Shown: piece by piece, positions 9,282 through 26,268 of the stretch
Layout of the letters: each line of letters opens with the position of its first letter
Numbering within the stretch: the stretch's first letter is position 1
NCBI GenBank assembly: GCA_903922605.1
Contig: CAIXUG010000005.1
Coordinates: 1-58,392 of the forward strand
Origin: an uncultured Verrucomicrobiota bacterium
GTDB taxonomy: Bacteria; Verrucomicrobiota; Verrucomicrobiia; Limisphaerales; UBA9464
Reading direction: 5' to 3'
Length of the DNA: 58,392 bases
Notes under the pieces: generated by a model
What the model was told of the DNA's origin: nothing
What the model saw: the letters and a program-made list of their open reading frames with translations, nothing else
The model's database searches: none
Made by a program: the position numbers and the translations under genes

Positions 9282-9497
9282 GGGCCGTCAGCCGGGGCGG
9301 AGTGGAGTGGAGTGAAGCTGGTTCTGGCTGATTCGGTCGTGAAGAATGTTGGTGACACGCCCTCCGGGATGCAACCTGGTGGAGTGTCAGAGACACTGAA
9401 AGTTGTGAGAAGGAAAATTTCTGATGGCGTTGGTATTGTTTACATATTAGAAACCGAAATCGGCTCTCGATTCACACGCGAGCCTTTCGAGAAACCA

Positions 9498-9920
9498 ATG
9501 AATTCCGCTCCGCCATTGCCGCCCGCCATCCCGTCGCAACCGGCACCGTTGACAACAACCAAGACGCCGTTCGCCTTTCAGGCAGCGCAAGCCAGCCTTC
9601 TGGCTCCGCTGATCGCCTTTGGAATGAACATGGTTGTGAACGTCGGCATGGGCAATCAGGCTTCCGCGGTGGTGAATATCATCACGGGTTCACTAGCCGT
9701 TCTGCTTATCGTTCTGGGATTCGCTTTTGGAGTCGTCGCCCTGTTTGGTATCCGCCGTCACGGAAAGAAATGGATCATGGGGCGCGCCGTCACCGGTGTC
9801 TGCATCAACGGAATTCTCATCCTGTTCATGGCGCTCAGCATTCCGGTATTCATGAAGGCGGCTGAACGAGCCAGAGAGAGGCAAAGGCAAAACGGTGGAC
9901 AGGAACAAGGCCGGCCATAA
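9498..9920 (+). CDS. Small DUF4190-like membrane protein
   Basis: 140 residues from the ATG at 9498. A longer frame from 9312 adds an unlikely N-terminus. A proline-rich cytoplasmic start (PPLPPAIPSQPAP) is followed by three hydrophobic segments: near LLAPLIAFGMNMVVNV, near IITGSLAVLLIVLGFAFGVV and near GILILFMALSIPVF. The IRRHGKKWIMGRAVTGVCIN stretch between the last two resembles the DUF4190 family. The tail is charged (ERARERQRQ). The role is unknown. Confidence 0.6.
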   Translation: MNSAPPLPPAIPSQPAPLTTTKTPFAFQAAQASLLAPLIAFGMNMVVNVGMGNQASAVVNIITGSLAVLLIVLGFAFGVVALFGIRRHGKKWIMGRAVTGVCINGILILFMALSIPVFMKAAERARERQRQNGGQEQGRP

Positions 9921-10040
9921 TCGCGGGTCGTTTTCTGTGAACTGCACGCTGGAGACTCTATTTTCCAAAACAGAATGGAGAGGGCGCATCTTTCACCGTG
10001 ACTGCCCGGGCTGATGTTGGGATGGCGGCGCGGTTGTAGC

Positions 10041-10057
10041 GTAGGTTTGTAACCTGC
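10041..10057. repeat. Short REP-like hairpin
   Basis: GTAGGTT, a TGT loop and AACCTGC form a small stem in the 9921-10171 gap between convergent genes. The rest of the gap shows no coding frame or other signal. No T-run follows. Confidence 0.35.
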
Positions 10058-10171
10058 ACCGGCGCCTGGATTTTCCGAGCGCGCATCCGAGCATTCCCCT
10101 TCCCTCGCTCTAAGGGCCAACAACGCGGCTTGAGGCGTTTTGCCAGACGGCTTGGTGCCGGTTGCCAGGTC

Positions 10172-10696
10172 TCAGCTGTCGAAGCCGGTATACTTTGGCT
10201 CCCGTTTCACAAACTCAACGCGCCACACCCGTGAGTCGTCGCGCGGGTCGAGGAACTCGAAAGTGAACATGTCGGGGCGCTCTTCGTCCTCCAGCCGCAG
10301 CAGGTAGAGATCGAGTTTGGCCTCGCGAATCTCGACCTCCCTTTGCCGGAGGAACTCGAGGGCTTGGCGTTCCAGCTCCGGGAAGCGGTTGCGAATGTCC
10401 TCTGCCTGGGTGAGCAGCGGTTCGCTCGGCGCATCCGCGTTGCCACCCACCACCAGGCGAAGCGTGCGGTCCGGCTGCGGCAGCTCACCCGTCCAAAGGT
10501 CGTCCTCGTACGTGAACATGCCCCACGACGGATGCCGGAACTGTCGCTGCGGCCTGTGCCTGCGAAGGCGGTCGCGGGCGATTGCCATGGCGACCCGGCC
10601 GGCGCTCCAAACCACCAGGCCGATGACCAGGGTCAGTATGCCCAACATCACGATGATGATCGTTTTGTCCTGCACGGGGAGACAATATGCGCCCAA
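10172..10696 (-). CDS. Single-pass membrane protein of unknown function
   Basis: 174 residues. One transmembrane segment lies at about residues 11-35 (TIIIVMLGILTLVIGLVVW), followed by a basic stretch (RDRLRRHRPQRQFRH) that puts the C-terminal domain in the cytoplasm. The soluble part begins WGMFTYEDDLWTGEL and continues with a charged helix (ELERQALEFLRQREVEIREAK). The beginning faintly resembles the DUF2262/DUF6985 type of small domains, but I would not assign it. It is divergent from the RCC1 giant at 10839. Confidence 0.5.
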   Translation of the reverse strand: MGAYCLPVQDKTIIIVMLGILTLVIGLVVWSAGRVAMAIARDRLRRHRPQRQFRHPSWGMFTYEDDLWTGELPQPDRTLRLVVGGNADAPSEPLLTQAEDIRNRFPELERQALEFLRQREVEIREAKLDLYLLRLEDEERPDMFTFEFLDPRDDSRVWRVEFVKREPKYTGFDS

Positions 10697-10727
10697 CGCG
10701 ATCGCTTCACGAGCAATTAGCCGCCGG

Positions 10728-10748
10728 CACCGGCTGCTACAGCCGGTG
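10728..10748. repeat. Perfect hairpin between divergent genes
   Basis: CACCGGCTG, loop CTA, CAGCCGGTG: a 9-bp perfect stem in the 10697-10838 gap between two divergent genes. Position would allow a regulatory site, but the C/G-rich short-loop form is equally that of a REP element. Confidence 0.4.
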
Positions 10749-10838
10749 GAGTTGCGATCCTTTCCCTTGACATTCCTGAAGACGGCTTGCGGTGGGAATC
10801 ACGAAGGTGTAGCCAAGACGTGGGCCGAAAATCCTCAC

Positions 10839-13800
10839 ATGATAAACCGCTTTCCCCTCCTGGTGCTGATCTGGCTGCTTTCTGCCAAGGCGGTTATCTG
10901 GGGGCAAAGCCCACCGCAATCCGGCCGGGTCGTGGCGTGGGGGCAGACGAGTGTCACCGGCGGTTCGAGCGGGGTCATTGCCGTCGCGGCGGGCGATATC
11001 CACGCCGCCGGCCTGATGAGTGATGGCACGGTTGTGGTGTGGGGGCAGGATGAAGGTTTTGGTGATACGTACGTTCCGGCCGGATTGAGCGGGGTAACAG
11101 CCTTGGCGGCGGGTGATCTCTACTTCGTCGCCCTGAAGGGCGACGGCACGGTGGTGGCCTGGGGTTACAACAGCGACGGTCAGACGACTGTCCCTGCCGG
11201 TTTGCACGGGGTGACGGCCATCGCGGCGGGCGAGGCGTTCACCATGGCCCTAAAAAGCGATGGGACGGTGGTGGCCTGGGGGGGCGCAGGCTATAACGAG
11301 CAGATCGTCCCCGCCGGTTTGACCAATGTGACAGGCATTGCCGCCGCCGGGGCGACCGCCTTGGCCTTGAAGGGCGATGGCACGCTGGTGGGGTGGGGTT
11401 ATAATCCGAACGGCGTCAACGGCCCCCCGATCGTACCATCGGGGGTGACCCACGTGAAGGCCATCGGACCGGGGCTGGTGGCCTTGAAAGACGATGGCAC
11501 GGTCTTGGACTGGTATAATCCGCCACCGGCCGGCCTGAGCAATGTGGTGGCCGTGGCGTCGGGCGGTTGCGCCGTGGCGTTGAAAAGCGACGGCACGGTG
11601 GTGGCTTGGGGGGATAACACTTACGGGGAAACGAACATTCCCGCCGGCTTGTCGGGTGTGTTGGGCATTACGGCGGGTTTTGGCCAGGTCGTGGCGATCG
11701 TACCCGGACCACCGGGCATCTCGGTCCAGCCTTCCGACGCGGTGGCGAACGGCGCCGCCACCGCCACCTTCGGCGTGACGGCGATCGGCACCGCGCCGTT
11801 GGCCTATCAATGGTATTACAATACCAACACTCCCCTGGCCGGGGCGACCAACGCGACCCTGACACTGGCCGACGTGCAGACCAATCAGGCGGGCACCTAC
11901 ACCGTCGTCATCACGAACCCCTACGGCAACGTGACCAGCGCCGCCGCCGTGCTCGCCGTGAATCGCTCGGCGCAGACCATCAACTTCGCCGGCGGGCTCC
12001 ACTCCGAGCTGATCTCCGCCCCGCCCTTCAAGCTCGGTGCCACGGCCAGCAGCGGGTTGCCGGTCGGCTACACCAGTTCCAATCCGGGTGTGGCCACCGT
12101 GAGTGGGAACACCGTGACCGTCACGGGCGCAGGGACCACCGTCATCACCGTCACCCAGGCCGGCGATGGGGCGTATCTGCCGGCCAGCGCCTCCCAGACC
12201 CTTCAGGTGGTCGCGACCGCCCCGGGCGGTTCGGTGGTGGCCTGGGCGGCAACGCCGGGCGGAGGTTTTCCGGCCATCCCCGCGGGCGTGAGCAACGTGA
12301 CGTCCATTGCGGCAAATGGTTGGAACATCATGGCCTTGCAAGGCGACGGCACGGTGGTGGCCTGGGGGCAAAATATCAGCTTCGGGGAAACCAACGTTCC
12401 CGCCGGTTTGTCGGGCGTGGTGGCCATCGCGGCGGGCGGTGAATTCGATCTGGCCCTGAAGAACGACGGCACGGTGGTGGCCTGGGGGGGGCAGACCAAT
12501 CTGCCCACCGGCCTGACCAACGTGACGGCCATCGCGGCGGGCCGGAACTTCGCTGTGGCTCTGCGCTCCGATGGCACTGTCGTGGCGTGGGGTCAGAACG
12601 ACTATGGTCAAACGAATGTTCCGCCCGGTTTGACCGGGGTTACTGCCATCGCGGCGGGTTCCTACGCCGTCATCGCCTTGAAAAATGATGGCACCGTGGT
12701 GGTTTGGGGCTACGTCTGGGCCGGCGATCCTCAACCGCCTGGCCTGATCGGGGTGACCGCCGTTGCTGCGGGGGAGGACTCCTTCGCCGTTTGGCTGGCC
12801 GACGGCACGGTGGTGGAATGGGGATACAGTGGTAACGGACAAACGGCTGTTCCCGCGTTTTTGAGCGGAGTGACAGCTTTGTCGTTCGGAAGTGATTTCA
12901 CCGAAGCCCTGCTAAGCGACGGCACGGTGGTGGCCTGGGGAGACGACGGCAATGCACCCATGTCCGTGCCGACCGGCTTGCGCGGGGTGACGGTCCTGGC
13001 GGCGGGAGGTAATTTCACCCTGGCGTTAGGGCTGATCCCTGCCTGCCTGGTCGTGGAGCCGCTTGACACGGTGGCGAACGGCGCCGCCACCGCCACCCTG
13101 GGAGTGACGGCGATCGGCACCGCGCCGTTGGCCTATCAATGGTATTTTAATACCAACACTCCCCTGGTCGGGGCGACCAACGCGACCCTGACACTGACCG
13201 GCGTGCAGACCAACCAGGCGGGCGCCTACACCGTCGTCCTCACGAACCCCTACGGCAGCGTGACCAGCGCCGCCGCCGTGCTCACCGTGAATCGCTCGGC
13301 ACAGACGATCAACTTCGGCCCGCTCGCGACCATACTGAGGAGTAACGGCCCGTTCGCTTTGGGGGCCACCGCCAGCAGCGGGTTGCCGGTCGGCTACAGC
13401 AGCTCCAATCCGGGTGTGGCCACCGTGAGCGGGAACACCGTGACCGTCACGGGCTATGGTACCACCCTCATCACGGCCACCCAGGCGGGAGATGCGGCGT
13501 ATCTGCCGGCGGCCCCGACCAGCCAGTCGCTGACGGTGACTGGGACGGCGCAGGCGATTCGGTTTGGTCCGTTGGCTGCCGAGCTGGTCAATGCCGCGCC
13601 ATTCACCCTCGGTGCCACGTCCGACAGCGGGCTGCCGGTCAGCTACACCAGTTCCAATCCCGCGGTGGCCTCGGTGGATGGGGATACTGTGACCGTCTCG
13701 CGTGCTGGCAGCACCCTCATCACGGCCACCCAGGCTGGCAACCTGACGTTTCAGCCGGCGACCTCGGTCAGCCGGACGCTTTACGTGCGGTCGCCCGGCC

Positions 13801-16800
13801 GGGTGGTGGCATGGGGTGACGACAATTCGGGTGAATCGGATGTTCCGTCCGGCTTGATCGATGTGACCTCCGTAGCCGCCGGGGCAGGGTTCAACCTGGC
13901 CTTGATGGCTGATGGCACCGTTGCGGCTTGGGGAGACAACTATTATGGCGAGACCACCGGTTTTCCAACGCAAACGTCGCCTTACCAGGCCGTGGCCAAC
14001 CCCGTCACCTTGAGCGGGCTCATCCTGACCAACGTGGTCGCCCTCGCGGCGGGCAATACTTTTGCGCTAGCCCTCCGAAGCGACAGCACGGTAGCGGCTT
14101 GGGGCGACAATACCTTTGGGCAAGCGACGGTTCCTGTCGGTTTGACCAATGTGATAGCCATCACGGCGGGCGAGGTCTTCGCCGTGGCCCTAAAGAGTGA
14201 CGGCACGGTGGTGGAATGGGGATATGGTTTAGGCGGCGTGCCTGACGGCTTGGAGAACGTGGTGGCCATCGCGGCGGGCGGGAATACCGCCCTGGCCCTC
14301 CGGAGGGACGGCACGGTAGTGGCCTGGGGAGACAATACCTATGGGCAGGCGACGCTTCCTGTCGGTTTGACCAACGTGACGGCCATCACGGCGGGATCTG
14401 ATTTCGCCCTGGCCCTCCGGAGCGACGGCAGGGTTGTGGCCTGGGGGAGCAACATCGCCGGGCAAACAAACGTTCCGGCTGGCTTGACCAACGTGGTAGC
14501 CATCGCGGCGGGGGATTTTCACACCGTGGTCTTGGAGCAAGCCGGCACCGTGGTGGCCTGGGGCGACAATGGTCCAGGTGAATCGGACGTCCCGGCCGGG
14601 TTGAACGGGGTGACGGCCGTTGCGGCGGGGGGCAAACACACGGTGGCGCTCACGTTGGCCCCGGCCCTCACGGCACCGTCGACAAACCTGACGGTGAATG
14701 TGGGGATCACCGCCACCTTCGGCGTGACGGCGATCGGCACCGCGCCGTTGGCCTATCAATGGTATTACAATACCAACACTCCCCTGGCCGGGGCGACCAA
14801 CGCGACCCTGACGCTGACCGACGTGCAGACCAACCAGGCGGGTGCCTATTCGGTCGTCATTACGTCCAGCTACGGTGGCGTGACCGGCACCGTGACCGCT
14901 CCCCCGGCGCAGCTCACGGTGGACCGCCTGCCGCAAACCATTGCGTTCGGCCCTCTGGCGGACCAACTGCTGGGTAACGCCCCCTTCAGTTTGGAGGCCA
15001 CCGCCAGCAGCGGGTTGCCGATCAGCTACACCAGCTCCAATCCCGGCGTGGCTGCGGTGAACGGGAACTCCGTGACGATCACCGGCAGCGGCACCACCAC
15101 GATCACTGCCGCTCAGGCCGGCGATGCGACCTATCTCCCGGCGGCCGAGGTCAGCCAGCCGTTGCCGGTGGTCAATGCCTGGCGGAGCCTGCCCGACGCC
15201 TATTGGCCCAACCTTCCGATCACGGTCACGATCCGCTGCGTGCCGCCGTCGGGGACGGTGGACTATGCCATCGAAGATGATGTGGCGTATGGCAATTCCA
15301 CCTACGGGTTTAACCCCTATGCCAGCATCAGTGCGGTGAGCGACGGCGGAACCATCAGCCAAAACGGCGTGAAATGGGGGCCGTTCTTCGACGACAGCCC
15401 ACGCACGCTGACGTATGTGGTCACGCCCTCCCCGGGCCTCTCCGATCTCTTTGATTTTTCGGGCACCCTGTCCATCAATGGAGTCGGCCAGCCGGTCGCC
15501 GGGATGACCGACGTGAGTTTCAACACCGCGTTCCATCCGGCTGACAACGATCCCGTGATTGACCATGTGGTCACTCTCGACGAGGTGACCGCCTACGCCG
15601 CCGCCTGGAAGAACAGCCAGACCTGGCCGGTCGCCCCCAATCCGATTCCCATCAATTACATGACCCAGGCCGGACTGTTATGGAAGGGCGGCGAGTATTA
15701 TGTCTTCGTTCCCTCCAATGCGCCGCCGTTTTGCTGGGTGAACGCCGTTCCACCGTCGCCCCTCGCCCAAACGCCGCCGGCCCTGACAGCCACCAACGCC
15801 TTTCGCAGCCTGACGAATGTCTTCGCACCCCACGTGCCGTTCACGGTGACGCTGACGATCACGCCGGCCGCCGACGTGTCGGTTTATGCCGTCGAGGAAC
15901 AGGTTCCGCCCGGCCTCGCCGTTGGAAGCTTTAGCCTCGGCGGAGTGTTTGACGCCATCAACCAAAAGATCAAATGGGGTCCGTTCTTCGACCATTTGCC
16001 CCGCAATCTGACTTATCAGGCGACCGCCCAGACCAACGCCCCCACCACGTTGGTCTTTGCCGGCGCGGTTTCTTACGACGGTTCGGCCACAGCCATCGCC
16101 GGCACGCGCTCGGTCGGCCAGGCGCTGGCGACCGTTAGCCTGGGCAGGCTGGCGCAAACGTATGACGGCACACCCCGGAGCGTGTCGGTCACCACCGTTC
16201 CGCCGCTGCTGGCGGTGGACGTGACCTACAACGGTTCGTCCAATCTGCCGGTCAACGCGGGCAACTACACCGTCATCGCGACCGTCACCGACCCGATTTA
16301 CCGGGGCGCGGCCACGAACGCCCTCGTCGTTGCTCCGGCGTTGGCGACCGTTAGCCTGGGCAAGCTGGCGCAAACGTATGACGGCACACCCCGGAGCGTG
16401 TCGGTCACCACAGTTCCGCCGCTGCTGGCGGTGGGCGTGACCTACAACGGTTCGTCCAATGTGCCGGTCAACGCAGGCAACTACACTGTCATCGCGACCG
16501 TTACCGACCCGAATTACCAAGGCGGCGCGACTAACACTCTCGTGGTCGGACCGGCCGCCACCCTGCCGGCACCGCAGTTGTATTCCTCTTTCGGCGTGAC
16601 CAACGGCCAGCTCGCCTTTGCCACGCAGCAGGCCCTTGGCCGGATGTATCTTGTGGAGTATAAGACCAATCTGTCCCAGCCGGATTGGATCATCCTCGCG
16701 GAAGGCGTCATCAAGACCACCCTGACGTCCATCGCCGAAGGGACCTCCTTTGACCCAGACCGGTTTTACCGCATCCGGATTCTGGCGGACAACCCGACGG

Positions 16801-17927
16801 ACCTGGCCTTGCCGACGGTCACGGTGACCACGCCCGCCGCCGGCCAGCAATTGACCAACTCGGTCCTCACCGTCGACGGCACCGCCCAGGACGATACCGC
16901 GGTGGCAGCGGTATTTTGCCAGCTCGACGGCGCCCCATGGGTGGCGGCTGGCACGACCAATGGCTGGACGAACTGGATGGCGAGCCTGGCGCTTGCCCCC
17001 GGCACGCACTCGGTCCGCGCCTATGCCGTGGATGCTTCGGGCAACAATTCGGTCACCAACGCGGTGAGCTTTCAGGCCGCACCGCCGCTGGATCCCCCCG
17101 AACTCCGGTTGTACGAACCGCTGGCACCCGCCCAGATGGGGCAACCCTACCATCAATCCGTCGGCGAGGGTGCGGGCGGGACGCCACCTTACCACTTCGT
17201 GTTGGTCACGGCGGGCGGATTCCCGCCCTTGGGAATTATCATGGACTTGAACGGGGTCCTGTCCGGCAAGGCATCGGTGGCGGGCACCTATCATTTCGGC
17301 GTCTGCGTGGTTGATCTGGTGGGGGCTCAGGACTGCGGTGTCGCCACCCTGGTGGTGGAGCCAGCCTACCAGCTCACCATCAGCACGACGGGCACCGGCA
17401 CGGGCACGGTGACAGCAAATCCTCCGGGCCCGACCTATACCAATGGCACGGTGGTCACGTTGACCGCCACGCCGGACGCCGGTTCCACGTTCGCCGGCTG
17501 GAGCGGGGCCGCGAGCGGAACGGGCACCACCACCGTGACGATGAACGGAAACCTGACGGTGACCGCCACCTTCAACCTCACGCCCCCGACGGGGTTTACC
17601 GGCACGTGGCAGGGCACCTGGACCAATTCGTTGGGTGTTTTTGGCGAGAACGACAGCTACCTGACGCTGGTGCTGACACAGACCGGCACGACGGTCCAAG
17701 GCAGCTATACCAACAACATCTTCTACTCTGACGACGGCAGCCTGGGCGTTACCAGCGGTCCGCTGGTGGATGGATCGGTCACCGGAGGCACCTTGCTGAT
17801 TTTTACGCAGGGAGGGACGGCCTTCCAGGCGACGATCAAAGGCACCACCATGTCGGGCGTCGGCTCCGAGAATTATCCGGTCTTTACCGGGATGTTCACC
17901 GGCCCCATTTTGCTGCAAAAACAATAG
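10839..17927 (+). CDS. Giant secreted RCC1-propeller, Ig-like and MBG repeat protein
   Basis: 2,362 residues from the ATG at 10839, where a signal peptide begins (MINRFPLLVLIWLLSAKAV). The frame is open upstream to 10317, but that part overlaps the divergent gene. RCC1-type repeats (core DGTVVAWG) fall into three blocks of seven at about 10929-11700, 12220-13030 and 13795-14660, so each block could be one seven-bladed propeller. Each block is followed by an Ig-like domain with the YQWY core and by Big_2-like units (QTINF, then SNPGVATV). Then come two copies of an FRSL/KWGPFFD domain, two MBG repeats (16126-16557), the shared YLVEYKTNLSQPDW module (internal here), further Ig-like domains, an InlB-type repeat (FAGWSGAASG) and a final beta-rich domain. 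No enzyme motif is seen; adhesion or binding at the surface is inferred. Confidence 0.8.
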   Translation: MINRFPLLVLIWLLSAKAVIWGQSPPQSGRVVAWGQTSVTGGSSGVIAVAAGDIHAAGLMSDGTVVVWGQDEGFGDTYVPAGLSGVTALAAGDLYFVALKGDGTVVAWGYNSDGQTTVPAGLHGVTAIAAGEAFTMALKSDGTVVAWGGAGYNEQIVPAGLTNVTGIAAAGATALALKGDGTLVGWGYNPNGVNGPPIVPSGVTHVKAIGPGLVALKDDGTVLDWYNPPPAGLSNVVAVASGGCAVALKSDGTVVAWGDNTYGETNIPAGLSGVLGITAGFGQVVAIVPGPPGISVQPSDAVANGAATATFGVTAIGTAPLAYQWYYNTNTPLAGATNATLTLADVQTNQAGTYTVVITNPYGNVTSAAAVLAVNRSAQTINFAGGLHSELISAPPFKLGATASSGLPVGYTSSNPGVATVSGNTVTVTGAGTTVITVTQAGDGAYLPASASQTLQVVATAPGGSVVAWAATPGGGFPAIPAGVSNVTSIAANGWNIMALQGDGTVVAWGQNISFGETNVPAGLSGVVAIAAGGEFDLALKNDGTVVAWGGQTNLPTGLTNVTAIAAGRNFAVALRSDGTVVAWGQNDYGQTNVPPGLTGVTAIAAGSYAVIALKNDGTVVVWGYVWAGDPQPPGLIGVTAVAAGEDSFAVWLADGTVVEWGYSGNGQTAVPAFLSGVTALSFGSDFTEALLSDGTVVAWGDDGNAPMSVPTGLRGVTVLAAGGNFTLALGLIPACLVVEPLDTVANGAATATLGVTAIGTAPLAYQWYFNTNTPLVGATNATLTLTGVQTNQAGAYTVVLTNPYGSVTSAAAVLTVNRSAQTINFGPLATILRSNGPFALGATASSGLPVGYSSSNPGVATVSGNTVTVTGYGTTLITATQAGDAAYLPAAPTSQSLTVTGTAQAIRFGPLAAELVNAAPFTLGATSDSGLPVSYTSSNPAVASVDGDTVTVSRAGSTLITATQAGNLTFQPATSVSRTLYVRSPGRVVAWGDDNSGESDVPSGLIDVTSVAAGAGFNLALMADGTVAAWGDNYYGETTGFPTQTSPYQAVANPVTLSGLILTNVVALAAGNTFALALRSDSTVAAWGDNTFGQATVPVGLTNVIAITAGEVFAVALKSDGTVVEWGYGLGGVPDGLENVVAIAAGGNTALALRRDGTVVAWGDNTYGQATLPVGLTNVTAITAGSDFALALRSDGRVVAWGSNIAGQTNVPAGLTNVVAIAAGDFHTVVLEQAGTVVAWGDNGPGESDVPAGLNGVTAVAAGGKHTVALTLAPALTAPSTNLTVNVGITATFGVTAIGTAPLAYQWYYNTNTPLAGATNATLTLTDVQTNQAGAYSVVITSSYGGVTGTVTAPPAQLTVDRLPQTIAFGPLADQLLGNAPFSLEATASSGLPISYTSSNPGVAAVNGNSVTITGSGTTTITAAQAGDATYLPAAEVSQPLPVVNAWRSLPDAYWPNLPITVTIRCVPPSGTVDYAIEDDVAYGNSTYGFNPYASISAVSDGGTISQNGVKWGPFFDDSPRTLTYVVTPSPGLSDLFDFSGTLSINGVGQPVAGMTDVSFNTAFHPADNDPVIDHVVTLDEVTAYAAAWKNSQTWPVAPNPIPINYMTQAGLLWKGGEYYVFVPSNAPPFCWVNAVPPSPLAQTPPALTATNAFRSLTNVFAPHVPFTVTLTITPAADVSVYAVEEQVPPGLAVGSFSLGGVFDAINQKIKWGPFFDHLPRNLTYQATAQTNAPTTLVFAGAVSYDGSATAIAGTRSVGQALATVSLGRLAQTYDGTPRSVSVTTVPPLLAVDVTYNGSSNLPVNAGNYTVIATVTDPIYRGAATNALVVAPALATVSLGKLAQTYDGTPRSVSVTTVPPLLAVGVTYNGSSNVPVNAGNYTVIATVTDPNYQGGATNTLVVGPAATLPAPQLYSSFGVTNGQLAFATQQALGRMYLVEYKTNLSQPDWIILAEGVIKTTLTSIAEGTSFDPDRFYRIRILADNPTDLALPTVTVTTPAAGQQLTNSVLTVDGTAQDDTAVAAVFCQLDGAPWVAAGTTNGWTNWMASLALAPGTHSVRAYAVDASGNNSVTNAVSFQAAPPLDPPELRLYEPLAPAQMGQPYHQSVGEGAGGTPPYHFVLVTAGGFPPLGIIMDLNGVLSGKASVAGTYHFGVCVVDLVGAQDCGVATLVVEPAYQLTISTTGTGTGTVTANPPGPTYTNGTVVTLTATPDAGSTFAGWSGAASGTGTTTVTMNGNLTVTATFNLTPPTGFTGTWQGTWTNSLGVFGENDSYLTLVLTQTGTTVQGSYTNNIFYSDDGSLGVTSGPLVDGSVTGGTLLIFTQGGTAFQATIKGTTMSGVGSENYPVFTGMFTGPILLQKQ
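16126..16557 (+). repeat. Two tandem 216-bp direct repeats encoding MBG domains
   Basis: Bases 16126-16341 and 16342-16557 are nearly identical copies of a 72-codon unit (LAQTYDGTPRSV at the start, PVNAGNYTVIATV in the middle). The low divergence at DNA level, including silent sites, points to a recent tandem duplication that could expand or contract. Confidence 0.75.
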
Positions 17928-23183: not shown

Positions 23184-23235
23184 GCTGCCAGCGAAGCAGG
23201 GGCGCGGCCATAATTGGCAGGGCTGAAAGCCTGCC

Positions 23236-23425
23236 CGAGGAATGCCTGGGGTGGAGCGAGCCGTGCGAGCGCAGCCCCAGGTCATCGAGCCAAATAGCGG
23301 AGCGCTGTAAGCGCGTCCCAAAGTGTTGGCGGCCCTTGAGTCGGGCCTTCAGCCCTCAGACCGATCCGAAAGGGCCTGCCTTGGGGCTTCGTTCACTGCG
23401 TTCGCTCCACCCCAGGCATTCCTCG
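23236..23425. repeat. Long inverted repeat (REP/MITE-like) in non-coding gap
   Basis: Bases 23236-23259 and 23402-23425 are a perfect 24-base inverted repeat (outer end CGAGGAATGCC). The pairing continues imperfectly inward for about 20 more bases per arm. The centre holds smaller palindromes. A further small palindrome (GGCAGG/CCTGCC arms) lies just outside at about 23216. The 23184-23536 gap contains no plausible gene. The form suits a RAYT-type REP doublet or a short non-autonomous element; no transposase is inside. Confidence 0.6.
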
Positions 23426-23536
23426 GACGCGCTTTCAACGCTCCGGCCCGGTAGGTGCGTGTTCATGGGTAGGGGAAAGGCAGCGAACCTTCTGCCAACA
23501 GGCTCGTAGCGGCTGCAGAATTTCGAAAACCGCCCA

Positions 23537-23599
23537 CTACTTGTCCTGCGCCACAAACTCGCACACGACTGGGCGGTGGTCGGAGGCCAATCCCCCGTT
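23537..23599 (-). pseudogene. Third, short copy of the EEP gene 3' end
   Basis: The minus strand reads NGGLASDHRPVVCEFVAQDK and a TAG, matching the last 20 residues of the EEP protein at 25354-26268 with four differences. DNA similarity continues weakly for some 40-60 bases beyond the stop codon. No upstream part of the gene is present. With the copy at 23995-24150 this gives three 3' ends in the same orientation. Confidence 0.7.
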
Positions 23600-23668
23600 G
23601 GAAAGCGATGTGGCCAACGGGTTCTTCCCTGAACGCCTGCCGCCAAGGCACCCTAACAAGGCAGCAAA

Positions 23669-23998
23669 TTAGGGCAGCCTGACTTCGCTGGATCTCCACC
23701 GCGTAATGTCCCCTTGGGCTACCAAGCTTCCCGCACGCACCAAGGCCGCCATGCGCCGATCGAACAACTCATGCCCAGCTTCCCCATCGGGAAACTCTGC
23801 GCCCAACGCTTCCCTCACCCGGCCAAAAACCATTGCGACTTTTCGCCAATGACCGTTCGCGGTTGAAAGATAGGCAATCACGGCATCATCAACTTGTGTA
23901 TCGGCAAGCGGGCTCATTGCGACGGAATTTAGTGATCGAACAGAGGGATGGCGAAACTTCAAATGCTTTTCGGTTGGCGCAATCGCATATCGGCTCAC
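23669..23998 (-). CDS. Small DUF3658-like protein
   Basis: 109 residues from a GTG at 23998 that overlaps the TGA of the EEP fragment (GTGA overlap). An ATG at 23917 would give the shorter and perhaps truer 82-residue form starting MSPLADTQVDDAV. The segment from AVIAYLSTANGHWRKVA through FDRRMAALVRAGSLVAQGD to the SEVRLP end looks like the C-terminal helical domain of DUF3658 proteins. That domain often follows a DUF1835 domain, which is absent here. The function is not known. It sits between two EEP 3' ends, in a patch of lower GC than the surroundings. Confidence 0.55.
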   Translation of the reverse strand: MSRYAIAPTEKHLKFRHPSVRSLNSVAMSPLADTQVDDAVIAYLSTANGHWRKVAMVFGRVREALGAEFPDGEAGHELFDRRMAALVRAGSLVAQGDITRWRSSEVRLP

Positions 23999-24150
23999 TT
24001 ATCCTCAGCCACGAACCCGCAAACGACCGGTCGGTGGTCCGAAGCCAGGCCCCAGTTCGCTGTGGCGAACACGTAGCTGTCTTCCTTCACCCACTCGTGG
24101 GCCATCCCTTTGCTCAACAGGATGTAGTCGATGCGGGAATAACTGTCCTC
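23995..24150 (-). pseudogene. Second copy of the EEP gene 3' end, about 50 codons
   Basis: The minus strand encodes EDSYSRIDYILLSKGMA, then HEWVKEDSYVFATANWGLAS and DHRPVVCGFVAEDK, stop. This is almost identical in protein to the end of the complete gene at 25354-26268 (MAHEW versus MAPEW), with a moderate number of silent DNA changes. The match ends abruptly at about 24150 on one side and at the stop codon on the other. An ATG at 24177 allows a 60-residue frame, but without the catalytic N-terminal two thirds it cannot be an active nuclease. Confidence 0.75.
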
Positions 24151-24237
24151 TTTGCCTATTGAATGTGACTTAAACATACAGCGGGAAGTGCCGTGTATGC
24201 GTTTGACTCCCTGACCTCTTGGGCGAGTTTTGCAGCT

Positions 24238-24465
24238 ATGGCTAAATTCACCGGATACATCGACGGTTCGAATGTTTCTTTATCGTCGGATAAGCCGTTC
24301 TTGATCAGATTCGGCGCAGCGCATGAGAAGTGGCCGAATTCACGTAAGGAATTCGATAGCCTTGACGAGATGCATGATTTTCAGGCAGTTGACAGTGATC
24401 CGTACGCGTATCTGAATCAGCACTTTGAGTTCAAAAGCGGTAAGTTTTTTCAGGTGGAGTTTTAA
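24238..24465 (+). CDS. Small protein of unknown function
   Basis: 75 residues from the ATG at 24238 (MAKFTGYIDGSNVSL), or 90 from an ATG at 24193. It has no signal peptide, no hydrophobic segment and no motif I recognise. It is acidic and aromatic toward the end (YAYLNQHFEFKSGKFFQVEF). Base composition is clearly more AT-rich than the rest of the window, which suggests recent acquisition. It is transcribed opposite to its neighbours, between the EEP fragment and the Sel1 gene. Confidence 0.4.
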   Translation: MAKFTGYIDGSNVSLSSDKPFLIRFGAAHEKWPNSRKEFDSLDEMHDFQAVDSDPYAYLNQHFEFKSGKFFQVEF

Positions 24466-24486
24466 GCCAGTAAACGGGAATTCATT

Positions 24487-25269
24487 TCACTTTTGAGGCT
24501 TGAACTCACGAGCCAAGCGTTGTCCTTCGATGCGTTGCTCTGGGCTTAAGGTTAGCTCAATTTGTTGGATGTTTCGTCTCGAAGGCTCGTCACCTTGCGC
24601 TCCGGCCAAAAGCATCCATTTGTAGCCTTGGGTTTCATCTTTAGGAACACCATGCCCAAGAGCGTACATAACCCCAAGGTGCCCTTGCGCCGCTGCAAAC
24701 CCTTGGTCTGCCGCTTTGCGGTACCACTTCACAGCTTCGGCTTCATTTTCTGGAATGCCTAATCCGCCCTCGTAGTGGATGCCGAGAGTGTCTTGCGCGT
24801 TGGGAAAGCCTTGGTCCGCCGCCATGCGATACCACTTCACGGCTTCGACTTCATCCTTTGGCACGCCTTGGCCTTTGTAAAACATATCACCGAGGTTGTA
24901 TTGCGCGCTCGGAAGCCCTTGGTCTGCTGCCATACGAAACCACTTTACGGCTTCGACCTCGTTCTTCGGTACCCCTTGGCCTTGGTCATACATGCTTCCG
25001 AGATTGTTTTGCGCCTCGGCATGGCCTTGATCCGCCGCTTTGCGATACCACCACGCAGCATTGACTTCGTCCTTCGGCACCCCTTGGCCTTGGTCAAGGA
25101 TGGCACCGAGAGCGAATTGTGCGTCAGCAACTCCATCCGCTGCATCGGCTTGAACCTCAGCAATGGGTCTCTCGGCATACCGTTGTGCCTTGTCCGCCGA
25201 TTTGGGCGAGCGATTGCAGGCAAGTGGCAATATGAGAGCCAATAGCGGAAAGACGCGCAGGAATCTCAT
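24487..25269 (-). CDS. Sel1-repeat lipoprotein-like protein
   Basis: 260 residues. The N-terminus MRFLRVFPLLALILPLACNR looks like a lipoprotein signal with Cys 18, although Pro at -3 departs from the usual lipobox. Residues about 45-225 contain five Sel1-like repeats of 36 residues: AQ-x-x-LG-x-x-Y-x-x-G-x-GVPK-[DN]-E, then AVKWYRMAADQG. Sel1 repeats are TPR-like protein-binding solenoids found in secretion and host-interaction proteins. The gene lies directly downstream of the complete EEP gene (84 bases), in the same direction, and is bracketed by EEP 3' ends. Confidence 0.8.
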   Translation of the reverse strand: MRFLRVFPLLALILPLACNRSPKSADKAQRYAERPIAEVQADAADGVADAQFALGAILDQGQGVPKDEVNAAWWYRKAADQGHAEAQNNLGSMYDQGQGVPKNEVEAVKWFRMAADQGLPSAQYNLGDMFYKGQGVPKDEVEAVKWYRMAADQGFPNAQDTLGIHYEGGLGIPENEAEAVKWYRKAADQGFAAAQGHLGVMYALGHGVPKDETQGYKWMLLAGAQGDEPSRRNIQQIELTLSPEQRIEGQRLAREFKPQK

Positions 25270-25353
25270 GCGCCGTAAGCCTCGCCAAACACTCCAATTG
25301 TTTCAAAAGAAAACCGGCTGATGCCGCCGAATGGTAGTCGAAAGCCCTGGAAG

Positions 25354-26268
25354 TTATTTGTCCTCCGCCACAAATCCGCAAACGACCGGTCGGTGGTCCG
25401 AAGCCAGCCCCCAATTCGCCGTGGCGAACACGTAACTGTCTTCCTTCACCCATTCCGGGGCCATCCCCTTGCTAAGCAAGATGTAATCAATACGAGAATA
25501 ACTGTCCTCGCGGCCGTAAAAGTGGGTCCAGGTGATGCGGGCGGGGTCGTAGCGCGGGTTTTCCGGCATCACGGTATCGCCGTTGCGCTCGGAGGGGCGT
25601 GTGTCCACTAGCCCGTTGGCTCCGCGACCGATTACCGCGCGGGTGGATTTGCTGTCCTTGGTGTCGTTGAAATCGCCGCAGACCAGGACGTTGGCCTCGG
25701 GGTTCTTCGCCAGCAGCTCATCAATGTGGGCGCGGAGCTGGAGCGCCTCCTGTTCGCGCAGTTCCGACTCGTCGGCATCGGCGATCGGCCGTTTCGACTT
25801 CAGGTGGGTCGTGACGAGGGTGAAGTGGTAGTCGGGCGTGACCGCAATCTCGAGTTCGGCGATGGCGCGGCTGCTGTGGAAGCGCCGGCCATTGAGCAGG
25901 AAACTGTCGTTGGTGTGCGGATTGCGCGCCACGATGGGGAAGCGGCTCAGCACGCCGACGAAGATGTTCGTGTCCCAGCCCGCCACATGCTCGAAGTGCG
26001 GCAGGTCCACGCCGGCGGCTTTGAGCGACGCCTGCAATTCCTGCAGGGCGGCCGGCTCGCCAATCTCCTGCATGGCCAGGATGTCCGGCCTGATGGCGGC
26101 GAGATTCGCCACGACTTTCGCGCGTGCTTCGGGTGACTTTTCCTTGCGGTTGCCGAAGGCGCGGAGGTGGTAGTTCTCGAGGTTGTAGGTCGTGACTACG
26201 AACCTCGTTTCGGCGAGGGCGGCCTGGGTCAGCAGCAGTCCGCAGCCCAGCAGTTTCCAGCAATTCAT
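25354..26268 (-). CDS. Secreted endonuclease/exonuclease/phosphatase (EEP) family protein
   Basis: 304 residues from the ATG at 26268 (MNCWKLLGCGLLLTQAALA, a signal peptide). The upstream frame to 26496 runs through simple repeats and is rejected. EEP motifs are present in order: VTTYNLENY, LAMQEIGEP (metal-binding Glu), NVLVCGDFND (catalytic Asp/Asn) and ASDHRPVV (catalytic Asp-His). This superfamily cleaves phosphodiester bonds in nucleic acids or phosphoinositides with Mg2+. The signal peptide suggests action outside the cytoplasm, perhaps on extracellular DNA. The 3' end occurs twice more downstream (23995-24150 and 23537-23599). Confidence 0.85.
   Translation of the reverse strand: MNCWKLLGCGLLLTQAALAETRFVVTTYNLENYHLRAFGNRKEKSPEARAKVVANLAAIRPDILAMQEIGEPAALQELQASLKAAGVDLPHFEHVAGWDTNIFVGVLSRFPIVARNPHTNDSFLLNGRRFHSSRAIAELEIAVTPDYHFTLVTTHLKSKRPIADADESELREQEALQLRAHIDELLAKNPEANVLVCGDFNDTKDSKSTRAVIGRGANGLVDTRPSERNGDTVMPENPRYDPARITWTHFYGREDSYSRIDYILLSKGMAPEWVKEDSYVFATANWGLASDHRPVVCGFVAEDK

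What the first reader, a model, noticed from the sequence alone, without database searches (positions are those of the whole stretch)
23537..26268. Three 3' ends of one EEP gene bracket small orphan genes
The complete gene (25354-26268) is followed, in the same orientation, by a second 3' end (23995-24150, about 50 codons, nearly identical protein) and a third (23537-23599, 20 codons, with similarity also past the stop). Between them sit AT-richer orphan genes: Sel1-repeat, a 75-residue protein and a DUF3658-like protein. Repeated gene 3' ends flanking foreign DNA are what integration at a gene's 3' end leaves behind, yet no integrase is present. It could be a cassette-like gene-capture site working in trans or by homologous recombination.
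Basis: partly seen in the sequence, partly recalled or inferred. Interest (0 to 1): 0.7.

Follow-up and report, generated by a model that had tools for sequence, protein, structure and literature searches.

The report
Gene tail repeatedly swapped by integrations
In this Verrucomicrobia-type genome the last part of one enzyme gene appears to have been replaced twice by incoming DNA, each time leaving the old gene end and small foreign genes downstream, at a spot where a related bacterium carries a serine-recombinase element.

Summary
The EEP gene (25354-26268, minus) is followed by two more copies of its own 3' end, with AT-richer cargo between. A close relative (G004) has one 3' end and no cargo, so the cargo is a derived insertion.

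The ends are layered. The outermost (C) is native and decaying. The middle one (B) is native for 67 nt, then foreign. The end in use (A) is foreign from codon 252 on. A and B differ by 18 synonymous codons and 1 amino acid, so both have served as working ends.

In same-genus G003, EEP is split at that same nucleotide beside a 526-aa large serine recombinase. The window's unit A ends in a half-site like this recombinase's attP arm, in exact register (14/19; single best of 116,748 positions). Against the other arm it scores only 11/19.

I read this as serial integration at an EEP attachment site: unit A by a serine recombinase now absent from the locus, unit B nearer the gene end by an unknown route. 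It works like e14/icd tail replacement and resembles SCC elements, but is a member of neither. Decayed whole paralogues are not supported. Integrase-less cassettes still moving in trans are possible, not shown.

The parts
25514..26268 (-). native body of the EEP gene, codons 1 to 251 and the first bases of 252
   Evidence: 51 of 756 nt differ from G004 up to the switch; PF03372
25514..25515 (-). GG of the left junction, inferred crossover core
   Evidence: change point after gene nt 756, support 741-757, GG at gene nt 754-755; coordinates
25354..25513 (-). tail A, foreign EEP 3' end now in use
   Evidence: 43 of the last 159 nt differ from G004; 55% GC against 64% in the body
24487..25269 (-). 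cargo of unit A: Sel1-repeat protein, 260 aa
   Evidence: PF08238, E 1.7e-57
24238..24465 (+). cargo of unit A: 75-aa orphan ORF (longest frame 24193-24465)
   Evidence: no match (own genome apart); coding status not shown
24157..24178 (-). right end of unit A: half-site like an attP arm of the G003 recombinase
   Evidence: 14 of 19 positions against the G003 P' arm, single best of 116,748 positions; not found elsewhere in 5 genomes at up to 3 mismatches
24155..24156 (-). GG of the right junction of unit A
23995..24154 (-). tail B, displaced EEP end; native to about 24091, foreign from 24090 to 23995
   Evidence: change point in B against G004: 4 of 67 then 26 of 96 differences
23669..23917 (-). 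cargo of unit B: 82-aa ORF, weakly DUF3658-like
   Evidence: 72-74% identical relatives in G047 and G154; DUF3658 only E 0.2
23594..23621 (.). 8-bp inverted repeat (23594-23601 and 23614-23621) at the edge of tail C
   Evidence: read by eye
23537..23601 (-). tail C, displaced native EEP end of 65 nt, decaying
   Evidence: 89% to G004 over 65 nt and continuous with the shared downstream DNA; conserved Trp lost

Best explanation
The 3' end of this EEP gene is an attachment site that has taken up DNA at least twice. First, DNA with a foreign EEP end and the 82-aa cargo gene entered near the end of the gene and left the native end (C) behind. Later a unit ending in a large-serine-recombinase half-site entered at the GG of codons 251-252; it gave the gene its present end (A), brought the Sel1 and 75-aa genes, and pushed the previous end (B) downstream. 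The recombinase is of the family that sits at this nucleotide of EEP in G003; it is not in this locus. Shown: the layering, the single end in the near relative, the shared breakpoint, the half-site, and selection on ends A and B. Inferred: that the new ends came in on the integrating units rather than by later repair, and that the recombinase acted in trans or was lost afterwards.
For: G004 is collinear on both sides at 90-92% with one EEP end and no cargo. The switch from native to foreign falls at gene nt 756 (support 741-757), on the GG core. In G003 EEP breaks after the same codon and runs into a 526-aa protein with Resolvase and Recombinase domains, and EEP resumes at the matching base on a second contig; these two ends abut with 4 nt overlap in the intact gene of G002. 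The arms of the G003 site form a dyad (16 of 20 positions), and the window's right end matches its P' arm at 14 of 19, the single best of 116,748 positions. A and B differ by 18 synonymous and 1 non-synonymous codons; C has lost a Trp kept in 72 of 73 tails.
Against: No recombinase in the locus. The left end of unit A has no second arm (6 of 19 to P', 7 of 19 to P), and the window arm matches the G003 P arm at only 11 of 19, a score that 182 positions of the window reach or pass. A plain serine-integrase reaction would split the gene, as in G003, dprA and lnt, not give it a new end. Unit B shows no recognised half-site, and its edges do not agree (foreign from -96 nt, native resuming at -65 nt). 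No donor of the foreign ends was found; the nearest is still G004 at 23 of 31 residues.
Confidence: 0.68

Rival explanations
1. A serine-recombinase element first split EEP, as in G003, and the gene was then mended by homologous recombination with a relative's EEP end and neighbouring DNA, leaving the element's right end and older ends downstream. The gene ends never travelled on mobile units.
For: Explains the missing second arm and missing recombinase, and the half-site at the right end. In G003 the element simply splits EEP. Unit B looks like a one-sided exchange with ill-matching edges.
Against: The mending crossover would have to fall by chance on the recombinase core (support interval 741-757 of 915 nt). 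A and B carry related foreign ends with different cargo, which suggests a common source of units.
Confidence: 0.2
2. The extra ends are remnants of tandem EEP paralogues decayed in place.
For: Three ends in the same orientation.
Against: One EEP and no extra end in G004; the displaced ends begin at sharp edges, switch between native and foreign, and B is not decayed relative to A; cargo is of different composition.
Confidence: 0.03
3. Assembly artefact: allelic variants of the EEP end from a mixed sample joined in one contig.
For: The genome is a 90-contig draft and reads could not be examined.
Against: Joined allelic variants would not put an attP-like arm in exact register at the junction, nor AT-rich cargo between.
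Confidence: 0.05

Closest known systems
e14 prophage in icd of Escherichia coli K-12 (icd/icdC); passages seen in PMC11148124
   Same: Integration inside a coding gene near its end; the element supplies a working replacement end (165 bp, 12 nt and 2 aa changes reported), and the old end is left on the far side.
   Different: e14 is a prophage with its own putative integrase gene (intE); here units of about 1.36 and 0.56 kb carry no recombinase, two displaced ends are stacked, and the linked recombinase is a serine one in a relative.
Staphylococcal and enterococcal cassette chromosomes (SCC, ECC) in rlmH; passages seen in PMC6222049
   Same: Large serine recombinases acting at the 3' region of a conserved gene, dyad-symmetric attachment sites, remnants left near the site.
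   Different: Target is EEP, not rlmH; units are tiny and lack ccr genes; about 160 nt of the gene is replaced, not a short repeat.
Gene-splitting large-serine-recombinase elements of the same order (G003 in EEP, own genome in dprA, G280 in lnt)
   Same: Same breakpoint in EEP (G003) and a similar attP arm in the same register.
   Different: Those split the gene and carry one large and one small serine recombinase; unit A keeps the gene whole, has one recognised arm and no recombinase.

Membership tests
large-serine-recombinase integrative element | encodes a large serine recombinase | tested here: not met
   units A and B hold only the Sel1, 75-aa and 82-aa ORFs; the G003 element does encode one
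large-serine-recombinase integrative element | attP-derived arm at both ends around a common core | tested here: not met
   arm recognised at the right end of unit A only; left end 6-7 of 19
large-serine-recombinase integrative element | exact insertion at the core without loss of target bases | tested here: met
   right junction of unit A continues with native EEP from the core; G003 ends abut in G002
e14/icd type of tail replacement | gene keeps an open frame through a supplied, synonymously diverged end and the old end is displaced | tested here: met
   the supplied end itself is inferred to be element-borne
e14/icd type of tail replacement | prophage with its own integrase between the two ends | tested here: not met
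   1.2 kb and 0.4 kb of cargo, no integrase
SCC/ECC | attachment site in rlmH and ccr recombinase genes | tested here: not met
   target is an EEP gene and no recombinase gene is in the units
integron cassette array | IntI integrase, attI and attC sites | not tested
   no IntI or attC search was run; flanks were only looked at by eye

The most novel reading that the evidence does not exclude
A pool of integrase-less mini-cassettes, each made of a functional, synonymously diverged EEP gene end plus one or two small genes and half an attP, is moved in trans by EEP-targeting serine recombinases. The gene end is itself the cassette's attachment site; each arrival renews the host gene and displaces the last, so unrelated cargo stacks up behind an intact gene.
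Probability: 0.22. Interest if true: 0.75.

Novelty: new variant of a known kind. Interest (0 to 1): 0.5.

Why it matters
If right, it shows how very small DNA segments without a recombinase can stack up behind a conserved gene while the gene stays intact, with the order of arrival readable from the decay of the displaced ends. It links a serine recombinase in one genome to its footprint in another and supplies a concrete core and half-site for tests. Displaced 3' ends could serve as a signature for finding such sites elsewhere.

Tried and rejected
Decayed tandem paralogues: rejected. Common arrangement: rejected. Counting the window, 74 EEP loci were examined for repeated ends (58, 16): displaced ends in the window and L088 only; L042 (G003) is split. 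Some had little downstream sequence (L054 271 nt, L066 45 nt, L166 66 nt), some genes are incomplete (L085, L092), and L094 gave an aberrant frame. Of 195 genomes of the order, 169 have a tail match; those with more than one are G000 (3), G108 (3) and G176 (2, full genes); G003 was not among the 195.

Led nowhere: tail B and the G003 recombinase in viral contigs; the arm-plus-tail pattern at up to 2 mismatches matched 174 of 293 genomes, by eye no more often than its backward control; the 75-aa protein in plasmids and phages; class-level tail search, 216 of 384 genomes with a match, where G443, G469, G566 and G575 show two weak ones each and were not followed. The cargo DNA was compared with the loci held only; it matched nothing there except EEP ends and the 82-aa gene in G047 and G154, whose loci show no EEP gene. 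Relatives of the Sel1 gene were not sought in other genomes. The own-genome recombinase in dprA is 32% identical to that of G003 and I do not propose it as the actor; its activity was not testable. A second EEP-like end on G108 C243 was not explained.

Papers: the listings (10 shown of 69 and of 194) showed none on serine-recombinase cassettes in Verrucomicrobia; two searches do not show absence from print. Searches were seen as listings.

Script errors: and again cut the G003 arms one base off; its dyad counts and the '6/19' for the P arm, and the arm counts, are void. One search has the right register; the 14 of 19 stands.

Full report
What is there. The minus-strand EEP gene (25354-26268; PF03372) is followed by two further copies of its own 3' end: B (23995-24154) and C (23537-23601). 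Between A and B lie a Sel1-repeat gene and a 75-aa orphan ORF; between B and C an 82-aa ORF only weakly like DUF3658 (E 0.2). The cargo has 53.7% GC against 63.2% for the window's 1750-nt mean.

It is an insertion. G004, whose record is titled uncultured Verrucomicrobia bacterium, encodes an EEP 94% identical and is collinear on both sides at 90-92% DNA identity, with one EEP end and no cargo. Of 74 EEP loci examined, the window included, only the window and L088 (G108) have a displaced end. Among 3444 ORF ends in 1.11 Mb, few others scored as high; I did not examine each. That set was gathered around EEP loci, so it compares EEP with its neighbours only.

The layers. Against G004 the gene differs at 51 of 756 nt up to codon 252 and at 43 of the last 159. 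The best change point is nt 756, support 741-757. Tail A is therefore foreign from there. Tail B is native at first (4 of 67 differences) and foreign after (26 of 96; support for the switch 59-68); its last 96 nt agree with A at 86 positions and with G004 at 70. Tail C is 89% like G004 over 65 nt and runs on into the shared downstream DNA. A and B differ by 18 synonymous and 1 non-synonymous codons; the gene body differs from G004 by 41 and 8. So both A and B have been kept as protein ends. C differs from G004 by 4 synonymous and 4 non-synonymous codons, one of them at its very edge, and has lost a Trp found in 72 of 73 EEP ends. The order is C oldest, B next, A in use.

The recombinase. In G003, same genus, EEP breaks after the same codon and runs directly into a 526-aa protein with Resolvase and Recombinase domains and a Zn-ribbon match below its cut-off. 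On a second contig EEP resumes at the matching base, beside a 222-aa Resolvase-domain protein. The two ends abut, with 4 nt overlap, in the intact gene of G002. That they belong to one element is inferred, since the contigs are separate. The two arms form a dyad about the GG: 16 of 20 positions.

The half-site. Unit A of the window ends TCAATAGGC and then native EEP; the G003 element ends TCAGTAGGC and then native EEP. Read outward from the core, the window arm matches the G003 P' arm at 14 of 19 positions, the single best of 116,748 positions on both strands. The register was fixed by the core; the length 19 and the choice between two arms were made after looking. Against the P arm it scores 11 of 19, which 182 positions reach or pass. 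The arm was not found elsewhere in five genomes. The left end of unit A shows no such arm (6 and 7 of 19).

Mechanism. I conclude that a large serine recombinase of this family recombined at EEP codon 252 in the window's lineage. The plain reaction would split the gene, as in G003. Here the gene runs on into a foreign end and the second arm is absent. Either the incoming unit carried the EEP end in place of that arm (preferred), or a split gene was later mended by homologous recombination. The switch point on the core favours the first.

Unit B. The older event lies nearer the gene end and is less clear: foreign sequence starts at -96 nt, native sequence resumes at -65 nt. G108, in another family, has a displaced EEP end starting at nearly the same place (last 65 nt, 91%; the first 35 of these identical) with a 186-aa ORF between; its changes are 1 synonymous and 5 non-synonymous codons over 66 nt. 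Two events at one spot hint at a second site, but no half-site was recognised. An 8-bp inverted repeat lies at the edge of tail C (by eye).

Context. Relatives of the recombinase lie in dprA of this same genome (L153, both halves match TIGR00732) and, by my reading, in lnt of G280 (L154; the second half matches TIGR00546 at E 2e-15, the first half matched no model), each with a small serine recombinase. Of 320 genomes of the order, 28 have a match at E 1e-20 or better, the own genome and G003 included.

Known relatives. The anatomy works like e14 in icd (passages of PMC11148124) and resembles SCC/ECC in rlmH (passages of PMC6222049). It is a member of neither: no recombinase in the units, another target, one recognised arm.

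Limits. Nearly all comparisons rest on draft genomes; the donor of the foreign ends is unsampled (best 23 of 31 residues, G004); no reads or experiments were available. The probability of the novel case was set to 0.22 after the arm counts were corrected.

Noticed in passing
L153 (own genome, contig C69) 7435-14660: dprA is split into two halves by about 6 kb holding a large serine recombinase and a small one; both halves match TIGR00732.
   Followed up: partly
L154 (G280) 9385-17575: A gene I read as lnt seems split by an element with the nearest relative (40%) of the G003 recombinase; only the second half matched the lnt model.
   Followed up: partly
L151 (G108 contig C243) 3526-3627: A lone EEP-like end (aa 270-303, 38%, E 0.003) with no EEP body, beside a small membrane-like ORF, in the genome that also has a displaced end next to its EEP gene.
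   Followed up: partly
L089 2132-2401, L090 6674-6916: Relatives of the 82-aa cargo gene at 72-74% in two other families, next to other small genes; matches in 9 of 195 genomes, own included, look patchy.
   Followed up: partly
window 23219-23442: Inverted repeat with 66-nt arms, 79% complementary, downstream of the EEP ends; the region is shared with G004.
   Followed up: no
L086 and L087 (G176): Two full EEP genes on two short contigs of one genome.
   Followed up: no
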